Positions 418 through 32,744 of a DNA stretch of 33,707 nt are shown here, one piece after another. Where the stretch lies: positions 1 to 33,707 of the forward strand of contig NZ_FNQY01000034.1 in NCBI RefSeq assembly GCF_900107765.1, read 5' to 3'. The DNA comes from Arachidicoccus rhizosphaerae. GTDB lineage: Bacteria > Bacteroidota > Bacteroidia > Chitinophagales > Chitinophagaceae. Below the pieces are notes generated by a model. It saw nothing but the letters and a program-made list of their open reading frames with translations, was not told where the DNA came from and searched no databases. The translations under genes were made by a program, and so were the position numbers. Numbering within the stretch: position 1 is the stretch's first letter; every line of letters starts with the position of its first letter.

Positions 418-449
418 TTTGATTAGATAATTTATATTACATATATTTG
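418..449 (+). promoter_or_regulatory. Possible second promoter in front of tnpC
   Basis: TTTG at 418-421 and TATATTTG at 442-449 are spaced by 20 bp, matching the Bacteroidota consensus. The -7 box ends only four bases before the tnpC ATG at 454, so a transcript from it would be nearly leaderless. This may therefore be a chance match in AT-rich sequence. Confidence 0.3.
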
Positions 450-453
450 CAAT

Positions 454-5465: not shown

Positions 5466-7078
5466 CTTTTTAATTCTATCTTCGTGAGTAGTTCTTTTTT
5501 GAATATGACTTCTGCTTTAATAGCTTTCTCAAATAGATTATAGCCAATTGGACAATCAATCTCAATTAAAGCTATTCCTAAATTTTCACTAAATTCAATT
5601 TTAAGATTATCAAAATAAAGAACATCATTTATTTTTAAAATTCGCGTGCCTATTTCATGACTAAAAATGAGATTAACCCTAGCTTCAGATTCTTTACTTG
5701 ACTCCACAATATCGTGAATCAATATTAAGTTTTCAGAAAATTCCCAAGCCCTTTTATGTTTTATTCCTTTAAATAAATATCCGTTATGATAAGCAGATAG
5801 ATGAGCTATTCCCGGTGTCAAATATTCCTCCACATCACAGGCTATAGCCCTTCTTCCTACGCGAAAAGCACCATAAACTTCACTCGAATTAATCCCATCC
5901 ACCACAACGGTATTATGCATATGAGTTGAACGCTCCAATAGCCTTTGCCTACCCTTTATATAAGTAGAAATACCCGGGTCAATTAAAAACGGCCTACCGG
6001 CAACGTTTAATACAAAAGACAATGTGTCTGCATGAGCATGACCAGGCTGATAGGATGCGCCAATTTGCCCAACATCTACCCTACATTCATAATTTACTGT
6101 ATTATAAACTCGATAACCAGATTCTCTTAATTGAAAATCGGCCCTCAGAATAATACCCAGTTTTGCACTATAATCCAACAACCAATCTGTCGAAAAAGAA
6201 ATACCGCTAGTGCTATCATTAAAATATGGGATTTCCCCGTTTACAAATGATATTTGCTTAAGCCAAGATACCATTCTTTCGGCCTTGTCCCTTAAATAAT
6301 ATTCAAAAACCTCATCCCCGTCTGGCCATTCCTTATACCAATCTATTAATTCTAGTAAACGAAACAGAATGATTTGGTGATACATAGGACTTAGTTCGAA
6401 ATGCCCTCCATCTGGTAAGATTTGTTCTTCCAACTGGGCTTTCAATAGGCGAGTCGCTTTATTAATCCACTTTATTTCTCCAAAAAAAGCGCCTCCCATT
6501 AATAGCGCAAAAAGATTCTCTAATAAATGATTTGCCAACAAATGATATTCCAATCTATTGCTCAGAAAATCCAATTCGGCATGCAGATAACGAAGAAGAT
6601 TATCATTGAATATGCTAGGTTCTCTGTTTATCAAACGAATTACATTAATAGAACGTAAAGACGCAGGATACGACTCCAGTTCTAGCTGGCCGTCATCTAA
6701 AAGAAAATATAGATCGGAAAGCCAACTCTCCTTTTTTGATTTCGAAATATCTTCCTGAAAGACAAAATGGCAATACTGCAAATTATAATTCCATAATTTT
6801 CCGAATTCATCAAAACCCCATTCAATCGATTTATCAAACTTCTTTTCAAGATTTAAAAATACAAAATGATTTCTATCTGCATCTAAAACGGTTTTATAAA
6901 CAGGGGGTTGAACACTAAAATCCAAGAGTGTTATCCGGCTTTCGTCATATTTCCCATTGTAAGCAGATAGGTCCTTAGCTTTACTCAACCGATAAATAAT
7001 CTGATATTGTATCTGTTTGAATTTTAAAAATCTAAGCGTCCGTAGCACACGTGCAACTATGTGAACTTTATTAAGCAT
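5462..7078 (-). CDS. Heparinase II/III-like protein (polysaccharide lyase family)
   Basis: A 538-residue protein with an N-terminal alpha/alpha-toroid and a C-terminal heparinase II/III-like beta domain. The signature PGHAHADTLSFVL (about 345-357) with FLIDPGISTY just after is the standard motif of the family. Candidate catalytic residues in the toroid are H184 (LLANHLLEN) and Y233 (SPMYHQ), by analogy with heparinase II. These enzymes beta-eliminate uronic-acid polymers. No signal peptide is visible, so access to the polymer is unclear; cytoplasmic or accessory roles are possible. Family members without signal peptides recur in O-antigen/capsule loci. The TviB-type dehydrogenase in the same locus would supply the uronic acid such a lyase needs. 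Confidence 0.82.
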   Translation of the reverse strand: MLNKVHIVARVLRTLRFLKFKQIQYQIIYRLSKAKDLSAYNGKYDESRITLLDFSVQPPVYKTVLDADRNHFVFLNLEKKFDKSIEWGFDEFGKLWNYNLQYCHFVFQEDISKSKKESWLSDLYFLLDDGQLELESYPASLRSINVIRLINREPSIFNDNLLRYLHAELDFLSNRLEYHLLANHLLENLFALLMGGAFFGEIKWINKATRLLKAQLEEQILPDGGHFELSPMYHQIILFRLLELIDWYKEWPDGDEVFEYYLRDKAERMVSWLKQISFVNGEIPYFNDSTSGISFSTDWLLDYSAKLGIILRADFQLRESGYRVYNTVNYECRVDVGQIGASYQPGHAHADTLSFVLNVAGRPFLIDPGISTYIKGRQRLLERSTHMHNTVVVDGINSSEVYGAFRVGRRAIACDVEEYLTPGIAHLSAYHNGYLFKGIKHKRAWEFSENLILIHDIVESSKESEARVNLIFSHEIGTRILKINDVLYFDNLKIEFSENLGIALIEIDCPIGYNLFEKAIKAEVIFKKELLTKIELKR

Positions 7079-8171
7079 CTATTCCATAAATTTTGAGAAT
7101 GCAATCTTTAATGCGTTCAGCAGCATTCCCATCCCATAAGGGAATACTTTTCGATTGCTTCCAATTGCCCGAAAATAGCTTTTCCATTGTAGGTCTTATA
7201 GAATGAGGATCAGCCCCTATCAACTCATTAGTTCCCAACGATATAGTCTCTGGCCTTTCTGTGTTATCTCGCAACGTCATGCATGGAATATTCATAATAG
7301 AGGTCTCTTCAGTAATTCCGCCGGAATCTGTAATGACAGCTTTGGAATTTTCAACCAAAAAATTAAACTCTAAATATCCGAGAGGCTCAATTAAATGTAG
7401 CCGATTATGTTTAACTCCCAACTTGTTTAGAATTTTTGCAGTTCTTGGATGGACAGGAAAAACTAAAGGCAAAGGGGTACTTGACTCAAGCAACTCATCA
7501 ATATAATATTTTAGCTTAGTCTCTTCGTCTACATTAGATGGACGATGAAGAGTCATAACCAAATATTCTTTTTCTTTCAACTTCAGTTGTTCCCAAACAG
7601 CCGGCCTTCTAAATCTTGACCGATTTTTCAACAATGTATCAATCATCACATTTCCAACATAAAAGATCCTCTCATCTGGAATACCCATTGACCTCAAATT
7701 AATATTCGCCACATCAGACGTTGTAAAAAAATAATCAGTAATAGCGTCGGTAACAATTCGATTTATTTCTTCTGGCATTAACATATCACCAGACCGAATC
7801 CCAGCTTCCACATGTGCAACTTTTATCGCCATTTTCTTGGCAACAATTGAACAAGCCATAGTTGATGTAACATCCCCGACGACAAGGACAAGATCTGCTG
7901 GATTGGCTGCTAACTCATTCTCAAACGCCATCATAATATGAGCCGTTTGTTCCGCTTGGGTTCCGCCACCACAATTTAAATTAACATTCGGCTGGGGTAT
8001 ACCCAATTCATCAAAAAAACTATCACTCATATTCTTATCATAATGTTGACCTGTATGAACTAAGCGATAGTCAATAATTTCTTCATGGATATTATGATTA
8101 TTAATCGCCTCTATAATTGGCGCAATTTTCATAAAATTGGGGCGTGCTGCAGCAACTAATGTTATTTTCAT
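7071..8171 (-). CDS. wecB: UDP-N-acetylglucosamine 2-epimerase, non-hydrolysing
   Basis: A 366-residue WecB/MnaA-type enzyme that interconverts UDP-GlcNAc and UDP-ManNAc. Motifs include AAARPNFMKIAPI at the N-terminus, VVGDVTST, HVEAGIRSGD (catalytic acid region), LHRPSNVD and DSGGITEE near the C-terminus, all in the usual order and at normal length. It provides UDP-ManNAc for the repeat unit. It overlaps the upstream GT by 4 bp and the downstream heparinase-like gene by 8 bp. It is distinct from the hydrolysing epimerase LegG encoded further upstream. Confidence 0.92.
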   Translation of the reverse strand: MKITLVAAARPNFMKIAPIIEAINNHNIHEEIIDYRLVHTGQHYDKNMSDSFFDELGIPQPNVNLNCGGGTQAEQTAHIMMAFENELAANPADLVLVVGDVTSTMACSIVAKKMAIKVAHVEAGIRSGDMLMPEEINRIVTDAITDYFFTTSDVANINLRSMGIPDERIFYVGNVMIDTLLKNRSRFRRPAVWEQLKLKEKEYLVMTLHRPSNVDEETKLKYYIDELLESSTPLPLVFPVHPRTAKILNKLGVKHNRLHLIEPLGYLEFNFLVENSKAVITDSGGITEETSIMNIPCMTLRDNTERPETISLGTNELIGADPHSIRPTMEKLFSGNWKQSKSIPLWDGNAAERIKDCILKIYGIDA

Positions 8172-13483: not shown

Positions 13484-14785
13484 TTACAACCTACCATCAA
13501 CTAACTCCCTCGCCAAAATAGCCTTCGTATCAAAAATGACTGCCCCTTTTTCTTTATATCTTCTAAAATCAAATCTTTGGAAGCTACTATGACCAACGGC
13601 TACAATTATGGAATTATAATTAACACCTTCATCAATTTTTTCTAATATATTAATGCCATATTCACGCTTTACCTCCGAATTATCGGCCCAGGGGTCATAA
13701 ATATCAACATCCGAGCCAAATTCTAACAACTCCTTATACATATCAACAACCTTGGTATTCCGAATATCTGGGCAATTTTCCTTAAAAGTAATACCTAAAA
13801 TTAAAATACGTGATTTTTTTATAGAGAGCCCTTTATGAATCATTAATTTAATTACTTTATTAGCTACAAATGGCGCAACCATGTCATTAACGCGGCGGCC
13901 AGATAAGATAACCTGAGGATGATAACCTAACATAGTTGCTTTATGTGCTAAATAATAGGGATCCACACTAATACAATGCCCACCTACGAAACCAGGTTTG
14001 TACTTTAAAAAATTATACTTCGTACCAGCTGCATCCAAAACATCATTAGTATCAATTCCGATCCTATCAAAAATTAACGCCAACTCATTTACAAACGAGA
14101 TATTAACATCTCGTTGGGCATTTTCAATAGCCTTACCAGCCTCTGCAACTTTCATACTAGGCGCCAAATGTGTTCCAGCCTTTATAATCGTTTTATATAA
14201 TTCATCAATTTGAAGGGCTACTTCCGGAGTCGAACCTGATGTTATTTTCATTGTATTCGTGAGTGTATGTATCTTATCACCAGGATTAATCCTTTCAGGA
14301 GAATAACCGCAATAGAAATCCTTATTAAACGACAATCCCGATATCTTTTCCAAAACAGGTACACATTCTTCTTCAGTACATCCTGGATATACCGTCGACT
14401 CATAAATCACCCAGTCACCCTTTTTTAGCACGCTCCCCAGCATTTCAGAAGCTTTTAGTAAAGGATTCAAGTCTGGTGAATTATATTTATCTATAGGTGT
14501 TGGAACAGTGACAATGAATATATTAGCATTGTTAAGATCATTCAGGTCGTTCGAACAAACCAACCCCCTTTCAAAATTAGTTTTTTTCGCTAATGTCAAG
14601 ACTTCATTTAACCTATCTAAATCTGCTTCTTGAGTTTTATCTACCCCTTCGTTCAATTCCTTCACTCTACACTTATCAATATCGAAGCCAAACACCGGAA
14701 AATATCTAGAAAACTCAATCGCTAAGGGTAACCCTACATACCCGAGTCCAATAATTGCAATTTTTTTATTCTCTAATAACATCAT
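13484..14785 (-). CDS. tviB: UDP-N-acetylhexosamine 6-dehydrogenase (TviB/WbpO type)
   Basis: A 433-residue nucleotide-sugar dehydrogenase that oxidises C6 of a UDP-HexNAc to the uronic acid with two NAD+. Visible features are the NAD site IIGLGYVGLP, VTVPTPID, YESTVYPGCTEEECVPVLE, GYSPERINPGDK, the lysine/asparagine core (KVAEAGKAIENAQRDVNI), catalytic C271 in GFVGGHCISVDPYYL and the C-terminal ILGITFKENCPDIRNTK domain. The motif wording is closest to TviB of the Vi antigen and WbpO, so UDP-GlcNAc or UDP-GalNAc is the likely substrate; UDP-ManNAc cannot be excluded because wecB is in the locus. Starts at 14785 or 14782 (MM). Confidence 0.88.
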   Translation of the reverse strand: MMLLENKKIAIIGLGYVGLPLAIEFSRYFPVFGFDIDKCRVKELNEGVDKTQEADLDRLNEVLTLAKKTNFERGLVCSNDLNDLNNANIFIVTVPTPIDKYNSPDLNPLLKASEMLGSVLKKGDWVIYESTVYPGCTEEECVPVLEKISGLSFNKDFYCGYSPERINPGDKIHTLTNTMKITSGSTPEVALQIDELYKTIIKAGTHLAPSMKVAEAGKAIENAQRDVNISFVNELALIFDRIGIDTNDVLDAAGTKYNFLKYKPGFVGGHCISVDPYYLAHKATMLGYHPQVILSGRRVNDMVAPFVANKVIKLMIHKGLSIKKSRILILGITFKENCPDIRNTKVVDMYKELLEFGSDVDIYDPWADNSEVKREYGINILEKIDEGVNYNSIIVAVGHSSFQRFDFRRYKEKGAVIFDTKAILARELVDGRL

Positions 14786-15046: not shown

Positions 15047-16024
15047 TCAAATTGATAGTTTGTTGACGCCAATTTGCTCGTATAGACTATAAATAGTATG
15101 TAATTTGTCCGACAAGTTTATATCATATATATAAAATAATGTCACATTGGGAAAGTCTTTTATATTTAAAAGAACGGAACTGCCAAAACTATATATTTCA
15201 AATTTTGTGGTGGGATTTTCATGAATTGTTGCCATTAGATACTCCTCAAAAATTAATCGCGACTCAATCACCGGTATCTTGGTCGGCATTACCCGTTCAA
15301 ATGGATGTGGATAATAAAAGTCTATATTTAATTGAGCAATTTTCTTTTCAACATTTCTTACATCATAATCTTTTCTGACAACAAATAGCGGCTGGCCAAC
15401 AAAAATACGGATAATTGTATCTGCGTCGAACTTCGCCGCACCTCCGTTTTGCCTAACGCGAGAATAATCAAATAAGGATATATAAAATGTATTTTCAATG
15501 ATATTTTTCAATCCATTATAAATCGTAAAATGGCATTTTGACATATCTTTTATCGTGGACATCTTATACCCAATCTTAAAAATTTTCCTTAACAGCTTTC
15601 TAGGTAGAGGATTAAACTCGGGTCTGTAATAAATACTGTTATCCGCAATGTTTGCCATTCCGTCATCGTATGTATATAAAACATTAAATTTTATTTTCCC
15701 TAATATATAATGAATGTAGATATTATCGATACTTGCAACGTAACAACTCTTAAATTTTCCAAGCTTTTCTATCCACAACTTATATTTAATTGTTAACAAA
15801 TTTAGTAACGCCTCTGGCCGATGATTAGTACGTGGAAGAAAAAAAATAGAAGTACCATATTTAGCTAAACGTTCTGAATAATATTTCCCTTTATCAGAAG
15901 ATTGCGAAAACAAAATTACAACTAAAAAATCATCCTTTGACTTTTCAATTATACTACAAGCAATTACCATTTGCATAATTGTATAACATATAATTATGCT
16001 CTTTGCGTTATTGTTGTTCTTCAT
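15047..16024 (-). CDS. GT52-family glycosyltransferase (sialyltransferase-like), predicted legionaminic acid transferase
   Basis: A 325-residue protein with the hallmarks of family GT52/Lst-type sialyltransferases: TYDDGMANI (the family DDGxxNI), a hydrophobic strand ending FVGQPLFV, and YYPHPFERVMP (the PHP motif shared by bacterial sialyltransferases, where His and Pro sit at the CMP-sugar site). A SFGSSVLLNI segment follows near the C-terminus, also in the family place. The enzyme would take a CMP-activated nonulosonic acid; the locus makes CMP-legionaminic acid, so transfer of that sugar to the repeat unit is the inferred role. It overlaps the wzx gene by 17 bp. Assignment is by motif only. 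Confidence 0.7.
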   Translation of the reverse strand: MKNNNNAKSIIICYTIMQMVIACSIIEKSKDDFLVVILFSQSSDKGKYYSERLAKYGTSIFFLPRTNHRPEALLNLLTIKYKLWIEKLGKFKSCYVASIDNIYIHYILGKIKFNVLYTYDDGMANIADNSIYYRPEFNPLPRKLLRKIFKIGYKMSTIKDMSKCHFTIYNGLKNIIENTFYISLFDYSRVRQNGGAAKFDADTIIRIFVGQPLFVVRKDYDVRNVEKKIAQLNIDFYYPHPFERVMPTKIPVIESRLIFEEYLMATIHENPTTKFEIYSFGSSVLLNIKDFPNVTLFYIYDINLSDKLHTIYSLYEQIGVNKLSI

Positions 16025-17315
16025 TGTTTTTTATTACTGTCTTAAATTTAAACCACGCCATAGGGTAGACTTTATTACTATACCAGGCAACACAAACAAA
16101 ATTTAAGCCACTAACAATTACTGTTGAGTAGGCTCCGCCAATCGGCCCCAAATCTTTTATTAAAAAATAGCTCAGCAATACTTGAACCAAAGAACACGAG
16201 AAAGTGATGATAGCCAACGACTTCGTTTTTTTTACGAAGAAGATATAATTCACCGCAAACAAATACAATCCTTGAAAAAATTGTGCAACAATCGCCCACA
16301 ATATAAATGGCTTGGCACCACGATAGGAAACAGAATAAAAGCGATTTAATACAAAAATTGAAATAAGATAAAATATCGCAGAACCAATAACTAAAAGGCC
16401 GACTCCAATATAGGTGACCTTTTTAAGGCCATTTTCATTTTGCTTTAATTGATGCTCATCTGTTACACTCAGCTTTTTATAAAGATATGGGACAAAAGCG
16501 TTATTAAAAGCCATCATAACAAACGAAACAAGAATACCAAATTGAAATCCTGTAGCATAAAGTCCGGTATCAGCAACTGAATAAAAATTGCTAATATAGA
16601 TCCTGTCGATAGCAGAACGAACCCACATACTTAAAGAATGAGGAATCAAAGGCAAACCAAAAGACAGTATTGCAAGTCTTATCTTCTTATCAAATTGCGG
16701 AACAAAATATCCTCGCCTCCAAAGCAAGAAAAGACTTAAGAAACCGAATAGAATCGTCGCAATTAAAGTTCCATCAACACTTCCTTTCCACCCTAAACCA
16801 ACCGCTATAACCAAAAGTAATGAAACAGACGTATTGACAATTGTCAAAGCAATTTTATACCCACCAAATTTAAATGGCTTCTCCTCTAATCTCCAAATTG
16901 TCAAATTCACGGTCGACATCGTATTAGCAAATGTCATAAAAATTGCTAAATAAACATACTCAATAGGCACTTGAAGTCCGTCATAAATTCGATCTCTAAA
17001 CAAAGAACAAAAAACAGCGAGTATGGCGGTGCTTAAAATAACTAAAGATATACCATTAAAAAGAAATTTCGCCAGATCCTCTTTTGAGATCTTATAATAG
17101 TGGACGCTAATAACTCCATCGATACTTAATGCCGCTAAAATATTTAATATCCCAACTAATATATTAAAATTCGTCACAATTCCGTAATCCTTGGGTGTCA
17201 AATAATAACTTAGTATAGGTAATACGAAAAAAGGGACGGCTTTATTTATCGCATCAGAGACCGTATAAATTAAAGTCGATTTAAATAAGGAACTCTTTAA
17301 AAACTTATTTATCAT
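16008..17315 (-). CDS. wzx: Oligosaccharide flippase, Wzx/MATE-like
   Basis: A 435-residue inner-membrane protein with about twelve predicted helices. The N-terminal region has the family wording FVLPILSYYLTPKDYGIVTNF, and the middle has GLPLIPHSLSMWVRSAIDRI, both typical of Wzx-type flippases (polysaccharide biosynthesis transporter family). It would move the undecaprenyl-linked repeat unit to the periplasm. It follows legF after 13 bp and overlaps the GT52 start by 17 bp. Confidence 0.9.
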   Translation of the reverse strand: MINKFLKSSLFKSTLIYTVSDAINKAVPFFVLPILSYYLTPKDYGIVTNFNILVGILNILAALSIDGVISVHYYKISKEDLAKFLFNGISLVILSTAILAVFCSLFRDRIYDGLQVPIEYVYLAIFMTFANTMSTVNLTIWRLEEKPFKFGGYKIALTIVNTSVSLLLVIAVGLGWKGSVDGTLIATILFGFLSLFLLWRRGYFVPQFDKKIRLAILSFGLPLIPHSLSMWVRSAIDRIYISNFYSVADTGLYATGFQFGILVSFVMMAFNNAFVPYLYKKLSVTDEHQLKQNENGLKKVTYIGVGLLVIGSAIFYLISIFVLNRFYSVSYRGAKPFILWAIVAQFFQGLYLFAVNYIFFVKKTKSLAIITFSCSLVQVLLSYFLIKDLGPIGGAYSTVIVSGLNFVCVAWYSNKVYPMAWFKFKTVIKNNEEQQ

Positions 17316-17328: not shown

Positions 17329-18009
17329 TTAGGACTTATTTGTAATTAAGAATTCCGCAAATTTAAAATCCATTAAAGTGTCAATATCTATTGAGCGATT
17401 ATTATCCATAATATAAGCGTATGAATTCTCTGTATAATACGCGTCTTTATTTATTAACTCTTTACGGATAACATATATAGCACCATTTGGATAATATGTC
17501 ATTTTTTCATCTTGACGATTTCTAATCTTATTTGGCTCAAAAATATCAATCAGTTTTCCGTTATCTGCAATATATCTATGCCAGACTATGGGATGTTGTT
17601 CAGGGCAATAGCTGACCACAGAATCCGCATTTTTATCGACAAACATGGAAATCGCCTGGTCTATATCATCTGAGGTTCGTAGAGGACTCGTAGGTTGAAG
17701 TACCACAAAGGAATCTATCTGCCCCCCTCCTTCTTCCTCTAGCCTTTTCAACGTATATTTAAATACATCAACAGCTTTCGCAGAGTCAGATGCAAGTTCA
17801 ACTGGGCGCATAAAAGGTACTTCCGCCCCATACTCACGTGCAACTGTGGCAATGCCCAAATCGTCGGTGCTCACAATTACTCTGGTCACCATATCGGCGT
17901 TAAGAGCTGCCTCAATAGTGTAAGCTATAAGTGGCTTTCCTTTTAATAATTTAATATTTTTGCCTGGTAGCCCTTTAGAACCTCCACGAGCAGGAATAAT
18001 GGCTAACAT
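17329..18009 (-). CDS. legF: CMP-legionaminic acid synthetase (CMP-nonulosonate cytidylyltransferase)
   Basis: A 226-residue NeuA/LegF-type cytidylyltransferase that joins CMP to a nonulosonic acid. The N-terminus has the nucleotide-binding motif IIPARGGSKGLPGKN, then KPLIAYTIEAAL, VSTDDLGIA, and VVLQPTSPLRT, with the last acidic/metal region at DIDTLMDF. Length fits the single-domain form. The pathway context (legB, C, H, G, I and ptmE immediately upstream) makes legionaminic acid a more likely substrate than Neu5Ac or pseudaminic acid. It follows ptmE after 4 bp. Confidence 0.88.
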   Translation of the reverse strand: MLAIIPARGGSKGLPGKNIKLLKGKPLIAYTIEAALNADMVTRVIVSTDDLGIATVAREYGAEVPFMRPVELASDSAKAVDVFKYTLKRLEEEGGGQIDSFVVLQPTSPLRTSDDIDQAISMFVDKNADSVVSYCPEQHPIVWHRYIADNGKLIDIFEPNKIRNRQDEKMTYYPNGAIYVIRKELINKDAYYTENSYAYIMDNNRSIDIDTLMDFKFAEFLITNKS

Positions 18010-18013
18010 GATC

Positions 18014-19063
18014 TTACAATTTTAAATGTTTAATATCTTCCTGCGCTTTTCTATAATCTTCTGGTTTACCAATATCTAACCAATAGCCATTAATCGGAAA
18101 GGTAATGAGAGTTCTCTTCATTTCGAGAACCTTTTCCATTAAGTCTGTAACATCATAAAGTTGATCATTAGGAATCATTCTTAATAATTCCTTCTTTAAT
18201 AAATAGATTCCCGCATTAGAAAAATATGTGTAACGGGGTTTTTCTTTTAGCGATTTTACTATCTGATTATCATCAGTCTCCAAAACCGCATAAGGAACAT
18301 CAAGAGAATAAGTTGTTGCGGCAACTGCCATGTCTGCCCCAGCGTCTTTGAATGCCCTATAAAACTCTACAAAATCAATATTGGTTAATAAATCACTGTT
18401 CATTATCAGTAATTCATCATATTCATAATCCTGAGTTAATAATAGAGATCCGATAGTGCCTAACGGTTTTTCTTCACGCAAATACCGAATTCTTAAATTC
18501 CGATCTGCCCCGTCCTTAAAGTAAGCTTCAAGTTGCTGACCTAAATAATTTATACTTAGAAATAGGTTTTTTATTCCTACTTTCGATAGCCGATCAACAT
18601 TATATTCAATGATTGGTTTATCTCCAACCTTTAAGAGAGGCTTGGGAGTTTTCTCGGTTAAAGGGCGTAAACGGGCCCCCCTTCCACCTGCCATAATTAC
18701 AGCATCAACTGGTAAAATCGTACTTCGAATATTAAAATTCAATATATCAATAACAACCTTATCCTTATTTAAAATTGGAATTATTTTAAAATTTTCCTTT
18801 CTAAAAGCTTCCAATAAATCTAAGTCATGCTCATTCTCATATATAAATTTGGGATCTGATTGCACAAATTTAAGAAGCTCGTCCTCAAAACCTAGCCCTT
18901 TAATAAACCCTCGACGCAAATCTCCGTCTGTTAAGGAGCCGATCAACCTATTATTTTCGTCAACGACAATCAAAATTGCATCCGCAGCTAAAGTATCTAG
19001 TTGCTGCAAAGCTGCTCTAACTTCCGAATTATATCTAATCAAATGTCTATTTGTCAAACTCAT
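18014..19063 (-). CDS. ptmE: CBS-domain sugar-1-phosphate guanylyltransferase (PtmE-like)
   Basis: A 349-residue protein with two N-terminal CBS repeats (about 1-115; ADAILIVVDENNRLIGSLTD and a second, weaker copy) fused to a nucleotidyltransferase domain starting DAVIMAGGRGARLRPLTEKT. Catalytic lysines lie in TPKPLLKVGDKP, and later motifs are LLIMNSDLLTNIDF and NAGIYLLKKE. In Campylobacter jejuni the homologue PtmE makes GDP-GlcNAc for the legionaminic acid pathway, and the gene order NeuB-NeuC-PtmE-CMP-synthetase is like that locus. The CBS pair suggests control by adenine nucleotides. It overlaps legG by 4 bp. Confidence 0.85.
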   Translation of the reverse strand: MSLTNRHLIRYNSEVRAALQQLDTLAADAILIVVDENNRLIGSLTDGDLRRGFIKGLGFEDELLKFVQSDPKFIYENEHDLDLLEAFRKENFKIIPILNKDKVVIDILNFNIRSTILPVDAVIMAGGRGARLRPLTEKTPKPLLKVGDKPIIEYNVDRLSKVGIKNLFLSINYLGQQLEAYFKDGADRNLRIRYLREEKPLGTIGSLLLTQDYEYDELLIMNSDLLTNIDFVEFYRAFKDAGADMAVAATTYSLDVPYAVLETDDNQIVKSLKEKPRYTYFSNAGIYLLKKELLRMIPNDQLYDVTDLMEKVLEMKRTLITFPINGYWLDIGKPEDYRKAQEDIKHLKL

Positions 19064-20214
19064 ATTATGTCATAAAATTTTTTAGTCAAACATTTATCAA
19101 AAGAAAAATTTCTTAACACTTCCATAATACGATCTGTTGTATTTCCTTCTCCATACGGATTTGTAATATTTTCAAGCCTATTTTTAAACTCGGCTGTTTG
19201 TGTTAACTTAATTGCACTTGATATCTCTGCGGCATTAACTTTAGTATTTAAAACACTCTCGGCCTGAATTCTGCCTTTCTGCCGGTCACCAACATTAATC
19301 GTCGCAGTATGCAAGGAGGGAGCTTCGATGATTCCACTTGAACTATTTCCAACAACCGCATCTACAACTTTTATTAAGGACAAAAACTTCAATGTTCCCA
19401 ATGAGGTAAATGCAATAGACATATTGGCGTATTCTAAAGTGAATTCATCTATCATTTTATTAATTATTCGTCCATTACTATCCGCGTTTGCTTTTGTGAA
19501 GACAAAAAAACTATCTTTTTGCTCCTTAATAGCATTAAGCAAAATTTGAAATTGTTCTCCAGTTGAATCATTATCCATAGTCGCCGGATGAAATGTGACT
19601 TGGTAATTAAATTTTAGAAATTTTACATTCAATGACTTTTCTAACTCATCTCGAGTCAACAAGTTCAATTCTCTAATATTATCGATTCCAATGGCTCCTA
19701 CATTAAATACAGTGTCCGGCTGCTCCCCCATCTGTATTATCCTATTTTTATACGTCTCTGTAGAAACAAAATGCAAATGACTCATCTTTGAAATCGAATG
19801 TCTTATAGCGTCATCATATGCCCCTTCGGTTATTTCCCCACCATGTATATGAGCAATAGGGATCTTCAGAATTAATGCAGAGCTAGCTACAGATAACATT
19901 TCATAGCGATCACCTAATACAACTATCAAATCAGGAGAAAGTTCAGTAAATGCGTCCGAATAACCAATCATCCCAACAGCCATAGATTTAATTATTGCTG
20001 ATGGAGTATCACCAGAAAGCAGCATTTCCACCTTTTTATTTATTTGAAACCCATCCGCTTCAATTGCTTTATAGGTCAAGCCAAATTCAGGAGACAAATG
20101 GGCGCCAGTCACAACAACTTGTAGTAGCCATTGCCTTTCCGCTTGGATAGCTTTCATTAAAGGTCTCAATAACCCATATTCTGCTCTAGTTCCCGTGATA
20201 ACACAAATTTTCAT
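19060..20214 (-). CDS. legG: NDP-sugar 2-epimerase, hydrolysing (LegG/NeuC type)
   Basis: A 384-residue hydrolysing 2-epimerase. It carries ITGTRAEYGLLRPL at the N-terminus, VVLGDRYEMLS, the HIHGGEITEGAYDDAIRHS stretch, FHPATMD and GNSSSGIIEAPS, all standard for the NeuC/LegG/NeuC2 group. In this pathway it removes the nucleotide from the 2,4-diacetamido-2,4,6-trideoxy sugar and inverts C2 to give the mannose-configured precursor of legionaminic acid. It adjoins legI with no gap and overlaps ptmE by 4 bp. It is not a duplicate of the wecB gene: the two belong to different branches. Confidence 0.88.
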   Translation of the reverse strand: MKICVITGTRAEYGLLRPLMKAIQAERQWLLQVVVTGAHLSPEFGLTYKAIEADGFQINKKVEMLLSGDTPSAIIKSMAVGMIGYSDAFTELSPDLIVVLGDRYEMLSVASSALILKIPIAHIHGGEITEGAYDDAIRHSISKMSHLHFVSTETYKNRIIQMGEQPDTVFNVGAIGIDNIRELNLLTRDELEKSLNVKFLKFNYQVTFHPATMDNDSTGEQFQILLNAIKEQKDSFFVFTKANADSNGRIINKMIDEFTLEYANMSIAFTSLGTLKFLSLIKVVDAVVGNSSSGIIEAPSLHTATINVGDRQKGRIQAESVLNTKVNAAEISSAIKLTQTAEFKNRLENITNPYGEGNTTDRIMEVLRNFSFDKCLTKKFYDII

Positions 20215-21225
20215 TTACAATTCAATTAATTCATCCTCTTCAAAATTTCTTTTTGCTTTTTTCCCTAATACGCTGTCCCACTTCATGGGGGACAAACCAG
20301 TTCCTGGTCTTTTTATAGTAACATTATTCTCCGAAAAAATCTCTCCTTCTCTTATTAAATACTTCGCCACAATACTTTTACGGGCTACATCTTTATTTCT
20401 TGCCTCAGAATAGGACGGAACTTTAGCACCATTTCCAGAGATTGCTTTTTCTATATTTCGGATGGAAGCGACCATGGTTTTAAGTTCGTTAGGCTCTAAA
20501 GAAGCCTTGTGATCTGGCCCTGGTAGGTTTCGGTCTAACGTAAAATGTTTTTCAATAACTACAGCTCCTAAAGCAACCGCAGCAATTGGCACCTCAATTC
20601 CCATTGTATGGTCCGAATAACCTATTGGGGTTTGCATCTCTGCTTGAATTGACAACATCGCCTTTAGATTAACGTCGATCATCGGTGTCGGATATTCGGT
20701 GTTGCAATGTAAAATTGTTATGTCGTTTTTCTCAACACCATTTTTTAAGAACACATCGACGGCTTCGCCTATTTCACCCATGTCTGCCATCCCTGTAGAA
20801 AGTATCACCTTTTTAAACAGTTGCGCGGCCAGCCGCAGATAGGGTAAATTTGTAATTTCTCCAGAAGGAATTTTCACCAAGTTTAATCCTATCTCCTTAA
20901 GGTAACACAAAGAATCTAAATCAAAAGCTGTGGCAAAAAATTGAATGTCTTTTTTATCACAATAATTCCGCAACTTGCTAAAATCGGAATGCGAAAGTTC
21001 AAGTCTTTGTAACATCTCCAATTGACTCTCAATATTATTCCCTGTATTCCTATTTTGATAATTTGCCTTTTTAGCAAATTTAGAGACCAGTTTTTTCGAA
21101 TCAAATAATTGAAACTTTACATAATCAACTTGCGCATCGGCAGCAGCATCAACCAGTTGGAACGCCTTGTTTAAATCACCGTTATGGTTAACTCCAGCCT
21201 CTGCTATAATTATCGTTTTTTGCAT
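20215..21225 (-). CDS. legI: N,N'-diacetyllegionaminate synthase (NeuB/LegI type)
   Basis: A 336-residue NeuB-family enzyme that condenses the 6-deoxy-ManNAc-type sugar with phosphoenolpyruvate to give the nine-carbon acid. The TIM-barrel part has EAGVNHNGDLNKA, VDYVKFQLFDSKKL, KIPSGEITNLPYL, ILHCNTEYPTP, GYSDHTMGIEVPIAAVALGA and EKHFTLDR. The C-terminal SAF (antifreeze-like) domain follows (RKSIVAKYLIREGEIF, KRPGTGLSP). Length and motif order are complete. One base is shared with legH. The choice of legionaminic over sialic or pseudaminic acid rests on the surrounding genes. Confidence 0.9.
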   Translation of the reverse strand: MQKTIIIAEAGVNHNGDLNKAFQLVDAAADAQVDYVKFQLFDSKKLVSKFAKKANYQNRNTGNNIESQLEMLQRLELSHSDFSKLRNYCDKKDIQFFATAFDLDSLCYLKEIGLNLVKIPSGEITNLPYLRLAAQLFKKVILSTGMADMGEIGEAVDVFLKNGVEKNDITILHCNTEYPTPMIDVNLKAMLSIQAEMQTPIGYSDHTMGIEVPIAAVALGAVVIEKHFTLDRNLPGPDHKASLEPNELKTMVASIRNIEKAISGNGAKVPSYSEARNKDVARKSIVAKYLIREGEIFSENNVTIKRPGTGLSPMKWDSVLGKKAKRNFEEDELIEL

Positions 21226-21881
21226 TATCTATTATTTTTTTTTGCTGGCACACCAACCCAAGTTTCTCCATTTCCGGTTGAAGTAACCACAGTGCTGCCT
21301 GCACCAATAATAACTTGATTTCCTATAGCAATTTGATTCGAAATTATTCCATTGCTACCAATAAAGGTCTCATTTCCGATTGTACTATCTCCATTTACAA
21401 TCGCTAAAGTGGAGATGTGAGAATGATCACCAATCCTAGCATTATGTTCAATTAAACAACCTGTATTCAAAATACAATTCACCCCTATATTTGCTCCAGC
21501 ATTTATAAGTGCCCTATGCATGACAATAGTTCCTTCACTTAAAGTTGCATAACTTGACAAGTAGGCCAAAGGAGAAACAACGGTCGCCATTTTTGCCTCA
21601 AATTTCTTCAGGTGTAAATAAATCCTTTTCCTAACTGCAGCGGATTGAATTTGCCCCACAGTAATTAAAAATGAACACCCCTTTTTACAAAATCCTAAAA
21701 TATCATTATCATCCCCAATAATCTCATAATCTAAAACTTTTTGACCAATTTTATGCCGCTCGTCTAAAATCCCCCAAATTTTATACTTTCCCTCCTGTTC
21801 GATTACATCAATACAAGATTGACAATGCCCCCCGCCTCCAATGAGAATTAAATTTTTGCTTATATTTGAGAGAATGGTCAT
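21225..21881 (-). CDS. legH: Sugar N-acetyltransferase with left-handed beta-helix (LegH/PglD/NeuD type)
   Basis: A 218-residue acetyltransferase. The N-terminal Rossmann-like nucleotide-sugar domain begins LILIGGGGHCQSCIDVI, and the C-terminal two-thirds is a hexapeptide-repeat beta-helix (GANIGVNCILNTGCLIEHNA, STIGNETFIGSN, VIIGAGSTVV). The His in IEHNARIGDHSHIS matches the catalytic base of PglD. It is predicted to acetylate the 4-amino group made by LegC. It lies 15 bp after legC. Confidence 0.85.
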   Translation of the reverse strand: MTILSNISKNLILIGGGGHCQSCIDVIEQEGKYKIWGILDERHKIGQKVLDYEIIGDDNDILGFCKKGCSFLITVGQIQSAAVRKRIYLHLKKFEAKMATVVSPLAYLSSYATLSEGTIVMHRALINAGANIGVNCILNTGCLIEHNARIGDHSHISTLAIVNGDSTIGNETFIGSNGIISNQIAIGNQVIIGAGSTVVTSTGNGETWVGVPAKKNNR

Positions 21882-21896
21882 CTGCTTAGCTTCTCC

Positions 21897-23042
21897 TTAT
21901 ATTCGCACACTACTTGGAATATTTACAATTCTATCTGATAACCAAATACTATTTTCCAAACCATCAGTCAAACAATCACTAAACATTGGCATTGTGTTCA
22001 TCAAATCCCAAATTGGCCGTGTCATGACACCGCGATCATTCGAAACCTTTAAAAAATCTTCTTGCGCGCTTCTATCATGAAAACAAATAGCATTAAGCCA
22101 ATAATTAGACTTTGCATGTTTTATTTCGCTAACAAATTGAACGTCCGCATTTTTAAAAAAATTACGATAGCTTAGAGCCAACTCTCTTTTATTTTCAATA
22201 AACCCATCTAGTTCCTCCAATTGTGCACATACCAAAGCCGCATTAAGATTGGGCATTCGATAATTATAGCCAACAGCATCATGTCTAAAACGCCAAGGGT
22301 GCGGAACTTTAGCTTGTGTAGTCAAATGCTTTAGTTCTTTGGCCACATACTCATCGTCAGTTATAAGGGCTCCCCCTCCGCCACAAGTTATTGTTTTATT
22401 TCCGTTAAAGCTAAACGTTCCAACTTTGCCGTATGTACCAGTATGTTTTCCCTTAAAAAAACTTCCGATCGACTCCGCGGCATCCTCAATCAAGACTATA
22501 TTCCAGGCATTACATATATTCAAAATTTCGTCAATTCTCAACGGCAGCCCAAATGTATGCATAGGCACACAAGCCTTAATTCGCTTTCCAGAAATCTTAT
22601 TATAAGTAAAGCCATCAGCCCTTTGTTCAGCATAGGCCTCTAGGAATGACTTTAATGATTCAGGAGACATTCCCATTGTATCCTTATCAACATCTATAAA
22701 AACAGGCCTGGCTCCAATATAAGAAATGGCATTCCCCGTTGCAATAAATGTAATTGCCTGTGTTAATACCTCGTCATTTTGCACAACTCCACTCACTAAT
22801 AACGCAATGTGTAAAGCACTCGTACCATTAACACATGCAATTGCATATTTTGCGCCACAATAATTCGCTAAATCCGCCTCAAATTTGTTTACAAAAGCTC
22901 CCACGGAAGAGACATAAGTAGAATCAATAGTTTCTAATAAATATTTCTTCTCCTTTCCATTGAAGGTGGGAGTATGTAACGGGATAAACTCCTGTGTTTT
23001 AAAGATATCTCTTATAAAATCTATAATACATTCTACATCCAT
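21897..23042 (-). CDS. legC: PLP-dependent sugar aminotransferase (LegC type)
   Basis: A 381-residue DegT/DnrJ/EryC1-family aminotransferase. The cofactor lysine is K216 in FSFNGNKTITCGGGGAL, and the PLP ring-binding aspartate is D187 in IEDAAESIG. The substrate-binding pattern GTSALHIALLVSGV and GYNYRMPNLNAALVCAQLEE are also seen. It would transfer an amino group from glutamate to the 4-keto sugar made by LegB. The LegC subgroup is longer at the N-terminus than PglE/PseC, as is this protein. It follows legB with a 2-bp gap. Confidence 0.87.
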   Translation of the reverse strand: MDVECIIDFIRDIFKTQEFIPLHTPTFNGKEKKYLLETIDSTYVSSVGAFVNKFEADLANYCGAKYAIACVNGTSALHIALLVSGVVQNDEVLTQAITFIATGNAISYIGARPVFIDVDKDTMGMSPESLKSFLEAYAEQRADGFTYNKISGKRIKACVPMHTFGLPLRIDEILNICNAWNIVLIEDAAESIGSFFKGKHTGTYGKVGTFSFNGNKTITCGGGGALITDDEYVAKELKHLTTQAKVPHPWRFRHDAVGYNYRMPNLNAALVCAQLEELDGFIENKRELALSYRNFFKNADVQFVSEIKHAKSNYWLNAICFHDRSAQEDFLKVSNDRGVMTRPIWDLMNTMPMFSDCLTDGLENSIWLSDRIVNIPSSVRI

Positions 23043-23044
23043 AA

Positions 23045-24232
23045 TTACATTTTTGAGTCTAAATATTTACCTGTTTCTAAATGATTAAAATTGGGAATCA
23101 TTTCATTAAACAAATCAACAATCTCGCTTTTTTCCCACCGTCCCTGACTTTTCATCCTATGAATCGTGGTTTCAAAACTCAGCAATTTGCCTTCATCAAT
23201 ATTTAATTCATTTTTGATAACGCCTAAATTATTAAAACGATCAAAATCAATTGTTTCATTTTCTGTAAAAAACTCTTCAAAATCTTTCTCTCCAGTGGTA
23301 TCACTTGGGGTGAACAGACAAGGCCATTTATTTTTCTTAGCCAATACCTGAACCAAACCTCTCGCTTCGCTTTCATCTTCACAGATATGAGGCTCATAAC
23401 CTAATTGTGCCAAAAATTTTACGGCAATATCAGAAAAGCTAACGAGATTTAACTTTTGGCTTAGTTTTGGAAAAAAGATATCTCGATTTTCTCCAAATAT
23501 AGCAGACATCAAACAAAGTTCACCAGCCTCTTTAGAGACAACAAAATATCGACGAACATCATTAGGGGCAACAATCGGCTGGCGCTTTTGGATACGTTGA
23601 TTAAATCCATATAACAAAGAACCATCTGAAAACGCAACGTTAGCAAAACGTGCTGTAGAAATGGAAATATCAAGACTTCTACGCATTAAAAACATTTCCA
23701 TGATTCTCTTCGACGCCCCCATCATATTAACGGGATTTGCTGCCTTATCTGTGGATACACAAAAGTATTTTTTACTTTTTTTAATGATAGACTGGCGAAT
23801 TGTTTTATCCGTATTAAATACATTTACGTCTATCATACGCATTAACGTATATGGATCCTTTTCACTCCTTACGTGTTTTAATGCAGACAGGTTTAGCACG
23901 TAATCATAATCTCCATCATTCTCAATGAATCTATTATAAATATCTGAACCGATATCAAGGGCATAAGTTTTAAAATCTCCACTAATATATCCAAAGGAAC
24001 TTCTAATATCCCGAACCAGTTCAACCAAATTATTTTCACTTATATCAACTACATGTAATTTGAGCGGGTTCCTTTTGAAGATTTCCTTTGTCGTTGCCTG
24101 TCCAATTGTACCAGCGCCACCAAGCACCAAAAAACGAGACGACGAAATTATCTCCCTCAATGCCCTTTCGTGCTTTGATATATCATCAACGAACAATTCC
24201 CTGTCACGACCAATTATAGATAAAGTATCCAT
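23045..24232 (-). CDS. legB: NDP-GlcNAc 4,6-dehydratase (LegB type)
   Basis: A 395-residue extended SDR of the CapD/polysaccharide-biosynthesis group. The NAD site is GGAGTIG (residues 38-44). SALKHVRSEKDP and STDKAANPVNMMGASKR give the altered catalytic set in which Asp162-Lys163 and Met171/Lys175 replace the classical YxxxK, as in 4,6-dehydratases. The long C-terminal tail after the SDR core is usual for LegB. It would convert GDP-GlcNAc (from PtmE) to the 4-keto-6-deoxy sugar. It is the first gene of the legionaminic acid block, 194 bp after wzc; no clear promoter is visible in that gap. Confidence 0.87.
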   Translation of the reverse strand: MDTLSIIGRDRELFVDDISKHERALREIISSSRFLVLGGAGTIGQATTKEIFKRNPLKLHVVDISENNLVELVRDIRSSFGYISGDFKTYALDIGSDIYNRFIENDGDYDYVLNLSALKHVRSEKDPYTLMRMIDVNVFNTDKTIRQSIIKKSKKYFCVSTDKAANPVNMMGASKRIMEMFLMRRSLDISISTARFANVAFSDGSLLYGFNQRIQKRQPIVAPNDVRRYFVVSKEAGELCLMSAIFGENRDIFFPKLSQKLNLVSFSDIAVKFLAQLGYEPHICEDESEARGLVQVLAKKNKWPCLFTPSDTTGEKDFEEFFTENETIDFDRFNNLGVIKNELNIDEGKLLSFETTIHRMKSQGRWEKSEIVDLFNEMIPNFNHLETGKYLDSKM

Positions 24233-26869: not shown

Positions 26870-27685
26870 CTACCACAATCTAGATAATAATATTGCGATT
26901 ACTGAAACGGAAGCTGATATTATCGGTAAGGAGCGATTTAGAGCAGGATTTGCAGCTTGCGCAGCCTTTAATTTATTTTCTGGGCGCACATAGACAATAT
27001 CGTTTTGCTGTAAGTTGTAAAAAGGAGAATTCAATAACGCCTTATCATTAAAATTGATATGTTTTACAATACGATGACCATTATGTTCTCGAATGACTAA
27101 AACGTCATCACGAATAGCATACGGTGTCATATCTCCAGCCAAACTTAAAGCCTCTAAAACATTAATCTTGTTATTAGGTATAGTAAAACTACCAGAACGC
27201 TGCACCTCCCCTAACACGCTGATTTTAAAATTTAGTATCCGAATGTTTATTATTGGCTCTTTTGCTGTTTTAGCCACCTCAACAGCTATTTTCTGTTGCG
27301 CTTGTTCTTTCGTAAGTCCCTCCAGTTTTATTTTACCCAGTTGAGGAAAGTCTATAAAACCATCATCATCAACAATATAACCATCCGGCAAGCTAGCCGT
27401 TGCAGAGACACTGCTTGAGACCCCGGTGCTTTGGTTATCCATCGGTAATGAACCACTATTAAATAAAATATTGGCATCGGGATTCAAAGTGGTAACTTTA
27501 ATTGCAAGCGCATCTCCTGGCTGTATTTTAGGCTCAACATTATTTGTTATCAATTCATTGTAAACGACGCTATCTGGTAAATTACTAAAATAAACAAGGT
27601 TGCGCTTGGTAGTAGCGCAAGATTGCAACAAAAACATTGCGCCGCAAATTAGTGTTAAAGAAACTACAAATATTTTCTTATTCAT
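26870..27685 (-). CDS. wza: Polysaccharide export lipoprotein, Wza type
   Basis: A 271-residue outer-membrane export protein. A signal peptide ends with lipobox LQSC (C23), followed by the poly-export domain (IQPGDALAIKVTTLNPDA, GYIVDDDGFIDFPQLGKIKL) and an SLBB domain (VLGEVQRSGSF, NVLEALSLAGDMTPYAIRDD). A C-terminal hydrophobic helix (PIISASVSVIAILLSRLW) replaces the amphipathic Wza helix, as is common in Bacteroidota homologues. It pairs with wzc 58 bp downstream. A good promoter sits just upstream, so wza probably starts a transcript. Confidence 0.92.
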   Translation of the reverse strand: MNKKIFVVSLTLICGAMFLLQSCATTKRNLVYFSNLPDSVVYNELITNNVEPKIQPGDALAIKVTTLNPDANILFNSGSLPMDNQSTGVSSSVSATASLPDGYIVDDDGFIDFPQLGKIKLEGLTKEQAQQKIAVEVAKTAKEPIINIRILNFKISVLGEVQRSGSFTIPNNKINVLEALSLAGDMTPYAIRDDVLVIREHNGHRIVKHINFNDKALLNSPFYNLQQNDIVYVRPENKLKAAQAANPALNRSLPIISASVSVIAILLSRLW

Positions 27686-31451: not shown

Positions 31452-32744
31452 CTATTCCAGGCGGATTTGGCACCGTTGCCTGTTTTGCATGATCGTTTCT
31501 TTGCATAAGATCCGTTCCAATAAAACAGATTTAAGCCGGACCCACAGCATTTTTATGGTAACCTTTGACTGTTTGACGAGCTCTACTACCGCCTTTGACT
31601 TTACAGTTAATTGATGAATTATATGGGCTATCTGCAGCAGTATATAGTATTTATACAGGTTCATGATACTTTTGCGAACAAATTTGTGCTCCATATTGAA
31701 CCCGTTATTCTTCTGATCATTGAATCCTTTGTTTTCTATTAGCCATCTGCTGCGGCCAGAAGACATAAAACGTCTGACAATTGATTGAAGCTGTGGGCTA
31801 TCTAAATTAATGTTTAGGTTGATAATATAGGCGAACTTGGTCACTGCTTGACTGTTATGCTTTGGGAATCTCCCCTCCATATAGTTTAACTGGTGGTTTT
31901 GGTGTTGGAGGTTAGCAGCCCATAGATATTGAACATCTCCTAGGTTTGCTTCCTTTTGCCCTGGATTCAGCACTTCCGGGTACACAAAACTAACTTTTTC
32001 TAGGGTGTCCTTAATCTGCTCGTCCAGTTTTGGAAGGTTACCGTCTTTACGAGTAATTATATATTTCCAGCCATATTGCTCGCATTTTTTCATAACCGTT
32101 GCATTGGCATAGAGCCCATCTAAATGCAAACAGATAGGCAGCCGGGGAAACAGTTTGTGTAACTGGTCTGCGAGCCTGGAGAAGGCAGCCAGTTCACAGT
32201 CCTGCTTGTCATAAAACCCTTTTCCTTCATTACTAAGTAATTCACTGGCCACAGACAGGCAAAGGCCATTATCCGTTATGATTTTGGCTTCTAATACACT
32301 GGCATAATAAGTAGTTGTATTATTTTTTTTCTTGGAAAGCGCTCCATCCAATGGTGGGCTGTGGTAACTCGCAACTCCAGTAGCATCCATTATAATATGA
32401 TAATAACCTTCTGCCGGATTAATCACTTTGGATCGGATTAAAGCGTTAATCATCTTGCCTAATACCAATATCAGGTCTCCAGCATCTACTGTTTTAATTA
32501 CATTGTTCACCGTGTCAAAGTACGCTAGTTGCATGTCGCCGTGTAATGCTTCAAAATTATCCTTAAAATAGCTCTCATCTTTCCTAAGTTGGTTCATGTT
32601 ATTACGGGTTGAACCCTGAACCTGAAACATGTGAATGACCTGGGTCAATAGGTTGGACATGCTATATTTACAACAGTTATCAATCCGGTGGTCCTTTACC
32701 TCGCCTAGCCAGTCCGGCAACTCTGGAAAGAAATGGTTGCTCAC
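31452..32744 (-). CDS. DDE transposase (IS4-like/ISNCY-type)
   Basis: A 430-residue transposase with a DDE triad readable as D120 (IIMDATG), D209 (LHLDGLYAN) and E337 (WLIENKGFNDQKNNGF). The YREK-like spacing of the last motif and the long insertion between the second D and the E recall the IS4 group, but the sequence is closest in style to the loosely classified DDE transposases of Bacteroidota and the family is not certain. No stop or frameshift is present. The C-terminus is basic. A small stem-loop at 32754-32771 overlaps its upstream region. No perfect TAnnTTTG promoter is seen before the start codon. Confidence 0.88.
   Translation of the reverse strand: MSNHFFPELPDWLGEVKDHRIDNCCKYSMSNLLTQVIHMFQVQGSTRNNMNQLRKDESYFKDNFEALHGDMQLAYFDTVNNVIKTVDAGDLILVLGKMINALIRSKVINPAEGYYHIIMDATGVASYHSPPLDGALSKKKNNTTTYYASVLEAKIITDNGLCLSVASELLSNEGKGFYDKQDCELAAFSRLADQLHKLFPRLPICLHLDGLYANATVMKKCEQYGWKYIITRKDGNLPKLDEQIKDTLEKVSFVYPEVLNPGQKEANLGDVQYLWAANLQHQNHQLNYMEGRFPKHNSQAVTKFAYIINLNINLDSPQLQSIVRRFMSSGRSRWLIENKGFNDQKNNGFNMEHKFVRKSIMNLYKYYILLQIAHIIHQLTVKSKAVVELVKQSKVTIKMLWVRLKSVLLERILCKETIMQNRQRCQIRLE

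What the first reader, a model, noticed from the sequence alone, without database searches (positions are those of the whole stretch)
17329..24232. Complete GDP-type CMP-legionaminic acid pathway in a Bacteroidota polysaccharide locus
Seven contiguous genes in tight operon spacing match legB, legC, legH, legI, legG, ptmE and legF. The CBS-fused nucleotidyltransferase next to the NeuB/NeuC/CMP-synthetase homologues is the mark of the GDP-activated route known from Campylobacter jejuni, with a similar gene order. Legionaminic acid is a bacterial sialic acid analogue; its presence would shape surface recognition. PtmA/PtmF and PgmL homologues are absent, so GlcNAc-1-P must come from general metabolism.
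Basis: partly seen in the sequence, partly recalled or inferred. Interest (0 to 1): 0.75.

Follow-up and report, generated by a model that had tools for sequence, protein, structure and literature searches.

The report
Bacterial sialic-acid-like sugar (legionaminic) operon
This is a complete set of genes for making a bacterial look-alike of sialic acid, of a type already known from E. coli and other bacteria, except that its first enzyme belongs to a different protein family from the textbook one and probably does the same job.

Summary
The seven genes are real, intact and tightly packed on the minus strand (24232 to 17329), followed by a Wzx-type flippase and a GT52 glycosyltransferase. They encode a CMP-legionaminic-acid-type pathway with a CBS-fused nucleotidyltransferase (PtmE type). 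It is a PF02719 protein (395 aa), full-length kin of PDB 3pvz and, by published size and homologues, of Plesiomonas LegB and Elg1/WvaM; I call it LegB2. LegB2 tracks PtmE: 71 of 80 fetched relatives have a full-length PtmE within 10 kb (7 of the 9 misses lack downstream DNA), against 0 of 36 other PF02719 loci. LegB2 and TIGR04180-type LegB never share a locus (0 of 90) and exchange in one slot (at least 5 changes on the LegC tree). LegB2 is therefore most likely a second kind of GDP-GlcNAc 4,6-dehydratase, although its family and RefSeq name say UDP and I found no assay. The cassette is a new member of a known kind; LegB2's nucleotide, and a few LegB2-PtmE loci without NeuB, are the open points.

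The parts
23045..24232 (-). LegB2: PF02719 nucleotide-sugar 4,6-dehydratase (395 aa), first pathway enzyme; TDK-x7-M-x3-K active-site motif
   Evidence: PF02719 E 1e-38; no TIGR04180 match; PDB 3pvz 654 bits over residues 3-395; T161-D162-K163/M171/K175 invariant in alignment A1 of 11 sequences
21897..23042 (-). LegC: PLP aminotransferase
   Evidence: TIGR04181 535 bits, cut-off 420
21225..21881 (-). LegH: PglD/NeuD-type sugar N-acetyltransferase
   Evidence: TIGR03570 191 bits, cut-off 161; PglD_N and Hexapep
20215..21225 (-). LegI: NeuB-type nonulosonic acid synthase with SAF domain
   Evidence: TIGR03569 480 bits, cut-off 400; PseI below cut-off; the only NeuB match of the genome at E<=0.001
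19060..20214 (-). LegG: hydrolysing NeuC-type 2-epimerase
   Evidence: TIGR03568 485 bits, cut-off 236
18014..19063 (-). PtmE: CBS region fused to a sugar-1-phosphate nucleotidyltransferase
   Evidence: NTP_transferase 8e-40 and CBS 27.8 bits (cut-off 24; no single stretch passes)
17329..18009 (-). LegF: CMP-nonulosonic acid synthetase
   Evidence: CTP_transf_3 2e-29; PseF 182 bits, below its cut-off 206
16008..17315 (-). Wzx-type flippase, 13 nt after legF
   Evidence: Polysacc_synt 1e-11
15047..16024 (-). GT52 glycosyltransferase, candidate legionaminyltransferase
   Evidence: PF07922 4.5e-36; LegF-wzx-GT52 order also in E. coli NT1F31 (L184), 29% identity
24427..26811 (-). Wzc-type chain-length/tyrosine kinase protein (context)
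   Evidence: Wzz, GNVR, CbiA
26870..27685 (-). Wza-type export protein (context)
   Evidence: Poly_export, SLBB_2

Best explanation
The operon makes a CMP-activated legionaminic-acid-type sugar for a surface polysaccharide. Inferred steps: PtmE makes GDP-GlcNAc from GlcNAc-1-P and GTP; the PF02719 dehydratase (LegB2) makes the 4-keto-6-deoxy sugar; LegC aminates C4; LegH N-acetylates; LegG releases the nucleotide with 2-epimerisation to 2,4-diacetamido-2,4,6-trideoxymannose; LegI condenses it with phosphoenolpyruvate; LegF adds CMP. A GT52 transferase and a Wzx flippase coded just downstream probably transfer and export it. LegB2 is not of the TIGR04180 LegB family but fills the same slot and tracks PtmE in the same way, so it most likely also acts on a GDP-sugar. 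Shown here: gene content, families, co-occurrence and slot exchange. Inferred: the nucleotide, the stereochemistry and the product.
For: Gene families and spacing. Full-length PtmE within 10 kb of LegB2 in 71 of 80 named loci; of the 9 misses 7 have under 5.2 kb of DNA downstream, 1 (L129) has a match cut by the end of the stretch, 1 (L146) is a true miss. Comparison sets: 0 of 36 other PF02719 loci; TIGR04180 loci 19 of 26 full-length plus 4 with the NTP domain only; none of 90 LegB2 loci also holds a TIGR04180-type LegB. The two dehydratase types switch on the LegC tree (7 changes, at least 5 forced by starred branches) and on the PtmE tree (11 changes). Chemical anchors: the LegB2-PtmE cassette beside the O161 flippase gene in E. 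coli, whose O-antigen contains a legionaminic acid derivative (Li 2010, title only, seen in reference lists); P. shigelloides LegB of 395 aa in a cluster with PtmE, with a Leg-like glycan on flagellin by mass spectrometry (PMC4481668 passages). GDP-GlcNAc use is stated for the T. forsythia Leg route (PMC6388019 passage).
Against: No assay of LegB2 was found in the searches made. LegB2 shares its Pfam family with UDP-GlcNAc dehydratases, and RefSeq names it so in all 15 E. coli hits listed of 23. A distant sister group (39-45% identity) mostly lacks PtmE (5 of 6 loci). PtmE scores do not separate GTP from UTP use. Which LegB type T. forsythia has was not determined, so its biochemistry cannot be carried over. 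The 80 loci are the best matches of the scan, so close kin are over-represented.
Confidence: 0.72

Rival explanations
1. LegB2 uses UDP-GlcNAc like PglF, and LegC, LegH and LegG work on UDP-sugars as argued for B. subtilis Sps (published) and Legionella (recalled); PtmE then feeds another pathway or makes UDP-sugars itself.
For: PF02719 membership; the RefSeq name; a UDP-linked Leg route is argued for B. subtilis from complementation (PMC7439481 passages).
Against: PtmE beside LegB2 in 71 of 80 loci against 0 of 36 comparison loci; LegB2 lies outside the PglF/WbjB part of the tree; exchange in one slot with TIGR04180-type LegB.
Confidence: 0.2
2. The product is another nonulosonic acid of the same series, such as 8-epilegionaminic acid or a Leg with other N-acyl groups (this can hold together with the GDP route).
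For: The families do not fix C8 or the acyl groups. In the E. coli O161-type locus a FemA/B-type gene lies between LegC and NeuB, and the O-antigen holds a derivative of Leg (title).
Against: No extra epimerase or acyl-modifying gene lies inside the seven-gene run; the PF01370 gene at 3274-4272 is not excluded as one.
Confidence: 0.2
3. Pseudaminic acid or Neu5Ac pathway.
For: PseF is the best NCBIfam model for LegF, though below its cut-off; NeuB and NeuC equivalog models pass their cut-offs.
Against: PseB, PseC and PseI models fall below their cut-offs, LegC passes its own; a Neu5Ac pathway needs no dehydratase or aminotransferase (recalled).
Confidence: 0.04

Closest known systems
E. coli O161-type O-antigen locus and Plesiomonas shigelloides flagellar Leg cluster (Elg1/WvaM-type LegB)
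   Same: LegB2-type dehydratase, LegC, NeuB, NeuC, PtmE-type nucleotidyltransferase and CMP-synthetase together (PMC4481668 Table 5 passage)
   Different: Different internal gene order; the O161-type locus has a FemA/B-type gene between LegC and NeuB and no annotated LegH; P. shigelloides also lists PtmA, PtmF and a GlmU-like gene, not seen here. The P. shigelloides sequence itself was not fetched
Tannerella forsythia Leg cluster (strains UB4, FDC 92A2)
   Same: Phylum; gene set given as legBCHIGF plus ptmE next to a wzx-like gene (PMC6120980 passages); GDP-GlcNAc route stated (PMC6388019 passage)
   Different: Serves protein O-glycosylation; the family of its LegB was not determined here
Campylobacter jejuni CMP-Leg pathway
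   Same: Same steps proposed, with PtmE as nucleotidyltransferase (PMC13317340 and PMC4481668 passages)
   Different: C. jejuni LegB is of the TIGR04180 type by the NCBI family name and recall; the C. jejuni genes were not fetched. No PtmA/PtmF type in this window
PglF/WbjB/FlaA1 UDP-GlcNAc dehydratases
   Same: Pfam PF02719 and the [ST]DK-x7-M/Y-x3-K motif
   Different: WbjB 79, PglF 75, CapE 71 and FlaA1 (2gn4; name recalled) 49 bits, against 654 for 3pvz; PglF and WbjB separated by a long, fully supported branch
Bacillus subtilis Sps Leg pathway
   Same: First step by an enzyme with a predicted structure close to CapE, WbjB and PseB (SpsM) in Leg synthesis (PMC7439481 passages)
   Different: UDP-linked by complementation data; not compared by sequence here

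Membership tests
CMP-legionaminic acid pathway, GDP type | Full set of dehydratase, aminotransferase, acetyltransferase, hydrolysing epimerase, synthase and CMP-synthetase | tested here: met
CMP-legionaminic acid pathway, GDP type | Linked CBS-fused nucleotidyltransferase (PtmE) | tested here: met
   CBS 27.8 bits over cut-off 24, no single stretch passing
CMP-legionaminic acid pathway, GDP type | GDP-linked intermediates | not testable with these tools
   Only indirect: co-occurrence with PtmE
CMP-legionaminic acid pathway, GDP type | Legionaminic acid found in the organism | not testable with these tools
   needs DMB-HPLC/MS or NMR
TIGR04180 LegB (NCBI 'NAD-dependent 4,6-dehydratase LegB') | Match over curated cut-off 475 bits | tested here: not met
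   No match for this protein at E<=0.001; best in own genome 121.5 bits, on another contig
LegB2 (3pvz) clade of PF02719 | Falls in one supported clade with 3pvz | tested here: met
   16 rows, SH-aLRT 99; 654 bits to 3pvz. Elg1 and WvaM themselves were not fetched; they are placed by the published table
PglF/PseB/FnlA UDP-GlcNAc dehydratases | NCBIfam equivalog cut-offs for FnlA and PseB | tested here: not met
   FnlA 71.5 of 730 and PseB 56.9 of 407.75 bits; the wider Pfam family PF02719 is met
Pseudaminic acid pathway | PseC and PseI over cut-off | tested here: not met
   PseC 227.5 of 423.5, PseI 258 of 340.25

The most novel reading that the evidence does not exclude
GDP-GlcNAc 4,6-dehydratases arose at least twice in the SDR superfamily: the TIGR04180 LegB with a Tyr-x3-Lys motif, and LegB2 (PF02719) with a Met-x3-Lys motif. 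The two have replaced one another repeatedly beside PtmE, so the proteins named 'UDP-GlcNAc 4,6-dehydratase' in this clade, including the one in PDB 3pvz, are misnamed. Some LegB2-PtmE loci without NeuB, NeuC or LegF make GDP-linked diamino sugars as final glycosyl donors.
Probability: 0.55. Interest if true: 0.55.

Novelty: new member of a known kind. Interest (0 to 1): 0.4.

Why it matters
The cassette itself is a known kind. What matters is the first enzyme: its automatic annotation points to a UDP route while its gene neighbourhood points to a GDP route. Settling its nucleotide would correct the naming of a clade found in several phyla, give a solved structure (3pvz) a probable substrate, and allow a direct test of what sets GDP against UDP choice in 4,6-dehydratases.

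Tried and rejected
Considered and rejected: pseudaminic acid (PseC and PseI below cut-off); Neu5Ac (dehydratase and aminotransferase present); the Met motif as proof of a retaining enzyme (Met also in WbjB and in 31 of 36 comparison PF02719 proteins); PtmE family scores as proof of GTP use (near tie); GT52 as a constant partner (my HMM from two sequences found it only in L184 among the 97 loci searched).

Led nowhere: the T. forsythia biochemistry paper (cww129) and three other papers, PMC5420450, PMC6295735 and PMC6211297, are not held, so the LegB type of T. forsythia stayed open. The C. jejuni leg locus was not fetched. No structure was predicted, because a full-length PDB relative exists.

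Rows dropped or unequal: the LegC tree holds 14 and the PtmE tree 19 of the 26 TIGR04180 loci, the others having no qualifying gene in the stretch held. Of those 26 loci, 24 pass the TIGR04180 cut-off and 2 lie just or clearly under it (474 and 419 of 475 bits); one of the 27 genomes (G342) was not read. L068 and L069 are the same organisms as L092 and L114 (identical LegC rows), so the 80 and the ten phylum loci overlap by at least two. Of 41 PF02719 places outside LegB2 and its distant sister, I fetched stretches centred on 36; the five left out are G002:C1:3649989, G014:C74, G028:C19, G013:C12 and G057:C1:3320437. The set was taken from the list, not drawn at random; six genomes give two stretches each; 28 of the 36 stretches are 19 kb, the other eight 7.8-17 kb.
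Full report
What is there. The window is contig C46 of a 4.87-Mb genome. It belongs to Bacteroidota: genome G379, told as of the same class, gave stretch L069, which is the same organism as L114, Mucilaginibacter rigui. Seven intact ORFs at 24232-17329, minus strand, stand at the stated coordinates with gaps of 15 nt or less or short overlaps. The run continues into a Wzx-type flippase (16008-17315) and a GT52 glycosyltransferase (15047-16024), and lies after Wza- and Wzc-type genes. It is one part of a polysaccharide export locus. The NeuB homologue is the only match in the genome at E<=0.001.

What the proteins are. LegC passes the TIGR04181 cut-off (535 of 420 bits), LegG the NeuC model, LegI the NeuB/NnaB model and LegH the NeuD model; PseC and PseI stay well below theirs. 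PtmE has a CBS region and an NTP_transferase domain, but its family scores do not tell GTP from UTP (mannose-1-P guanylyltransferase 142 bits, archaeal GlmU-like 139, MurU 123). The first gene is the surprise. It is a PF02719 protein, 654 bits full-length to PDB 3pvz, 71-79 bits to WbjB, PglF and CapE. PMC4514872 (passages) lists Vibrio fischeri YP_203523 as a UDP-GlcNAc 4,6-dehydratase and cites 3PVZ, unpublished, for it. PMC4481668 (passages) reports a 395-aa LegB in P. shigelloides, 75% identical to WvaM and Elg1, in a cluster with PtmE. I call this type LegB2 and the TIGR04180 type LegB1.

Does LegB2 go with the GDP enzyme? A full-length PtmE (at least 33% identity, 85% coverage, within 10 kb) is present in 71 of 80; of the 9 misses 7 have less than 5.2 kb of DNA downstream, L129 has a PtmE match cut by the end of the stretch (82% coverage), and L146 lacks it. 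In a separate sample of 395 genomes of the phylum, 17 had a match at 1e-60: the window, ten close ones (66-75% identity), nine of them with full-length PtmE and one (L072) with a CBS-less PtmE-like enzyme, and six distant ones (39-45%), five without full-length PtmE in the stretch read. At least two of the ten are the same organisms as two of the 80. For comparison, 0 of 36 stretches around other PF02719 proteins hold a full-length PtmE (28 of the 36 are 19 kb long, the rest shorter), while LegB1 loci do in 19 of 26, with 4 more holding only the NTP domain.

The slot is exchanged. None of 90 loci with LegB2 also holds a LegB1. On the LegC tree (103 rows, 14 LegB1) the label changes 7 times, at least 5 forced by starred branches; on the PtmE tree (109 rows) 11 times. 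Both are quick trees with SH-aLRT support only. In one example, L043 carries LegB1 within a set of Pedobacter LegB2 cassettes, with PtmE, LegG and LegI 62-68% identical to those of the window. The simplest reading is that both dehydratases do the same step. GDP-GlcNAc dehydration by C. jejuni LegB is stated in PMC7439481 (passages); that C. jejuni LegB is of the TIGR04180 type rests on the NCBI name and recall.

Against this reading. RefSeq calls it UDP-GlcNAc 4,6-dehydratase in the 15 E. coli hits listed of 23 (23 of 5,426 genomes; query, a Vibrio LegB2 gene). In the dehydratase tree (60 rows) LegB2 and 3pvz form a clade (99) with the six distant sisters outside it, and a branch of 3.1 changes per column separates both from PglF, WbjB and all 36 comparison proteins; the program warns that long branches meet there. 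LegB2 keeps TDK-x7-M-x3-K ([ST] allowed at the first place) in 94 of 94 loci, but Met at that place also occurs in 31 of 36 comparison proteins, so it does not decide stereochemistry. Of the 24 LegB1 proteins whose pattern was printed, 23 show TSTS...Y-x3-K (26 examined).

Chemistry anchors. The E. coli locus beside the O161 flippase gene holds LegB2, LegC, NeuB, NeuC, a PtmE-type nucleotidyltransferase and the CMP-synthetase, with a FemA/B-type gene between LegC and NeuB; Li 2010 reports a legionaminic acid derivative in O161 (title only, in the reference lists of PMC10191223 and PMC4875605). P. shigelloides flagellins carry a Leg-like glycan by mass spectrometry (passages). T. forsythia Leg synthesis is said to involve GDP-GlcNAc (PMC6388019 passage), but its LegB family was not determined here. 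These anchors support a Leg-type product for the LegB2 cassette; none fixes LegB2's nucleotide.

A side line. Six of the 80 LegB2 loci (L095, L096, L102, L109, L115, L137) have PtmE and a LegH-type gene, three of them a close LegC and three other DegT-type matches, with no NeuB or NeuC match in the stretch held; L137 is only 8 kb long. The gene after PtmE is a glycosyltransferase-type protein in L095, L096, L137 and L115 (under the Pfam cut-off in L115) and a flippase in L102; that of L109 was not scanned. Genome-wide, 4 of the 6 have a strong NeuB elsewhere, 1 a weak match, 1 none. Such loci may make GDP-linked diamino sugars as end products. Of the papers listed by my searches on GDP-GlcNAc dehydratases (six) and on GDP-linked bacillosamine (ten), none shows in its title or the start of its abstract an assay of this family or a GDP-linked diamino-sugar donor; I saw passages of five of the six and of four of the ten, the others as listings only.

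Verdict. The cassette is a new member of a known kind, with a well-posed open question about its first enzyme.

Noticed in passing
window 15047-16024: GT52 glycosyltransferase (a family that by recall includes sialyltransferases) overlapping the Wzx-type gene right after legF; candidate legionaminyltransferase. E. coli NT1F31 (L184) has the same LegF-wzx-GT52 order, 29% identity.
   Followed up: partly
window 7071-8171 and 13484-14785: WecB-type UDP-GlcNAc 2-epimerase (TIGR00236 311 of 210 bits) and a TviB-like nucleotide-sugar dehydrogenase (TviB model 537 of 592 bits), suggesting a HexNAc uronic acid next to the nonulosonic acid.
   Followed up: no
window 52-2070 and 31452-32744: IS66 genes at the left end and a weakly transposase-like ORF (under the Pfam cut-offs) at the right end flank the polysaccharide locus.
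   Followed up: no
window 5462-7078: Heparinase II/III-like protein inside the polysaccharide locus.
   Followed up: no
L072 8915-10867; L198 904-3516; L204 9413-11973: LegB2 (L072) or LegB1 (L198, L204) next to a PtmE-like nucleotidyltransferase of NTP-domain length, without a close LegC or NeuB match in the stretch: perhaps other GDP-6-deoxy-amino-sugar routes.
   Followed up: partly
L095, L096, L102, L109, L115, L137: LegB2-PtmE loci without NeuB/NeuC in the stretch held; possible GDP-linked diamino-sugar donors.
   Followed up: partly
L183-L186 (E. coli): RefSeq names LegB2 'UDP-N-acetylglucosamine 4,6-dehydratase' next to LegC and a 'nucleotidyltransferase family protein' in 4 of 4 loci opened; probably a wrong substrate name. 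Two of the four also carry a Gfo/Idh/MocA gene and an oxidoreductase (PtmF/PtmA type), two do not.
   Followed up: partly
own genome G000: No GlmU match passes its cut-off (best 61.6 of 366.85 bits); a 334-aa protein on C22 matches both GlmU halves weakly.
   Followed up: no
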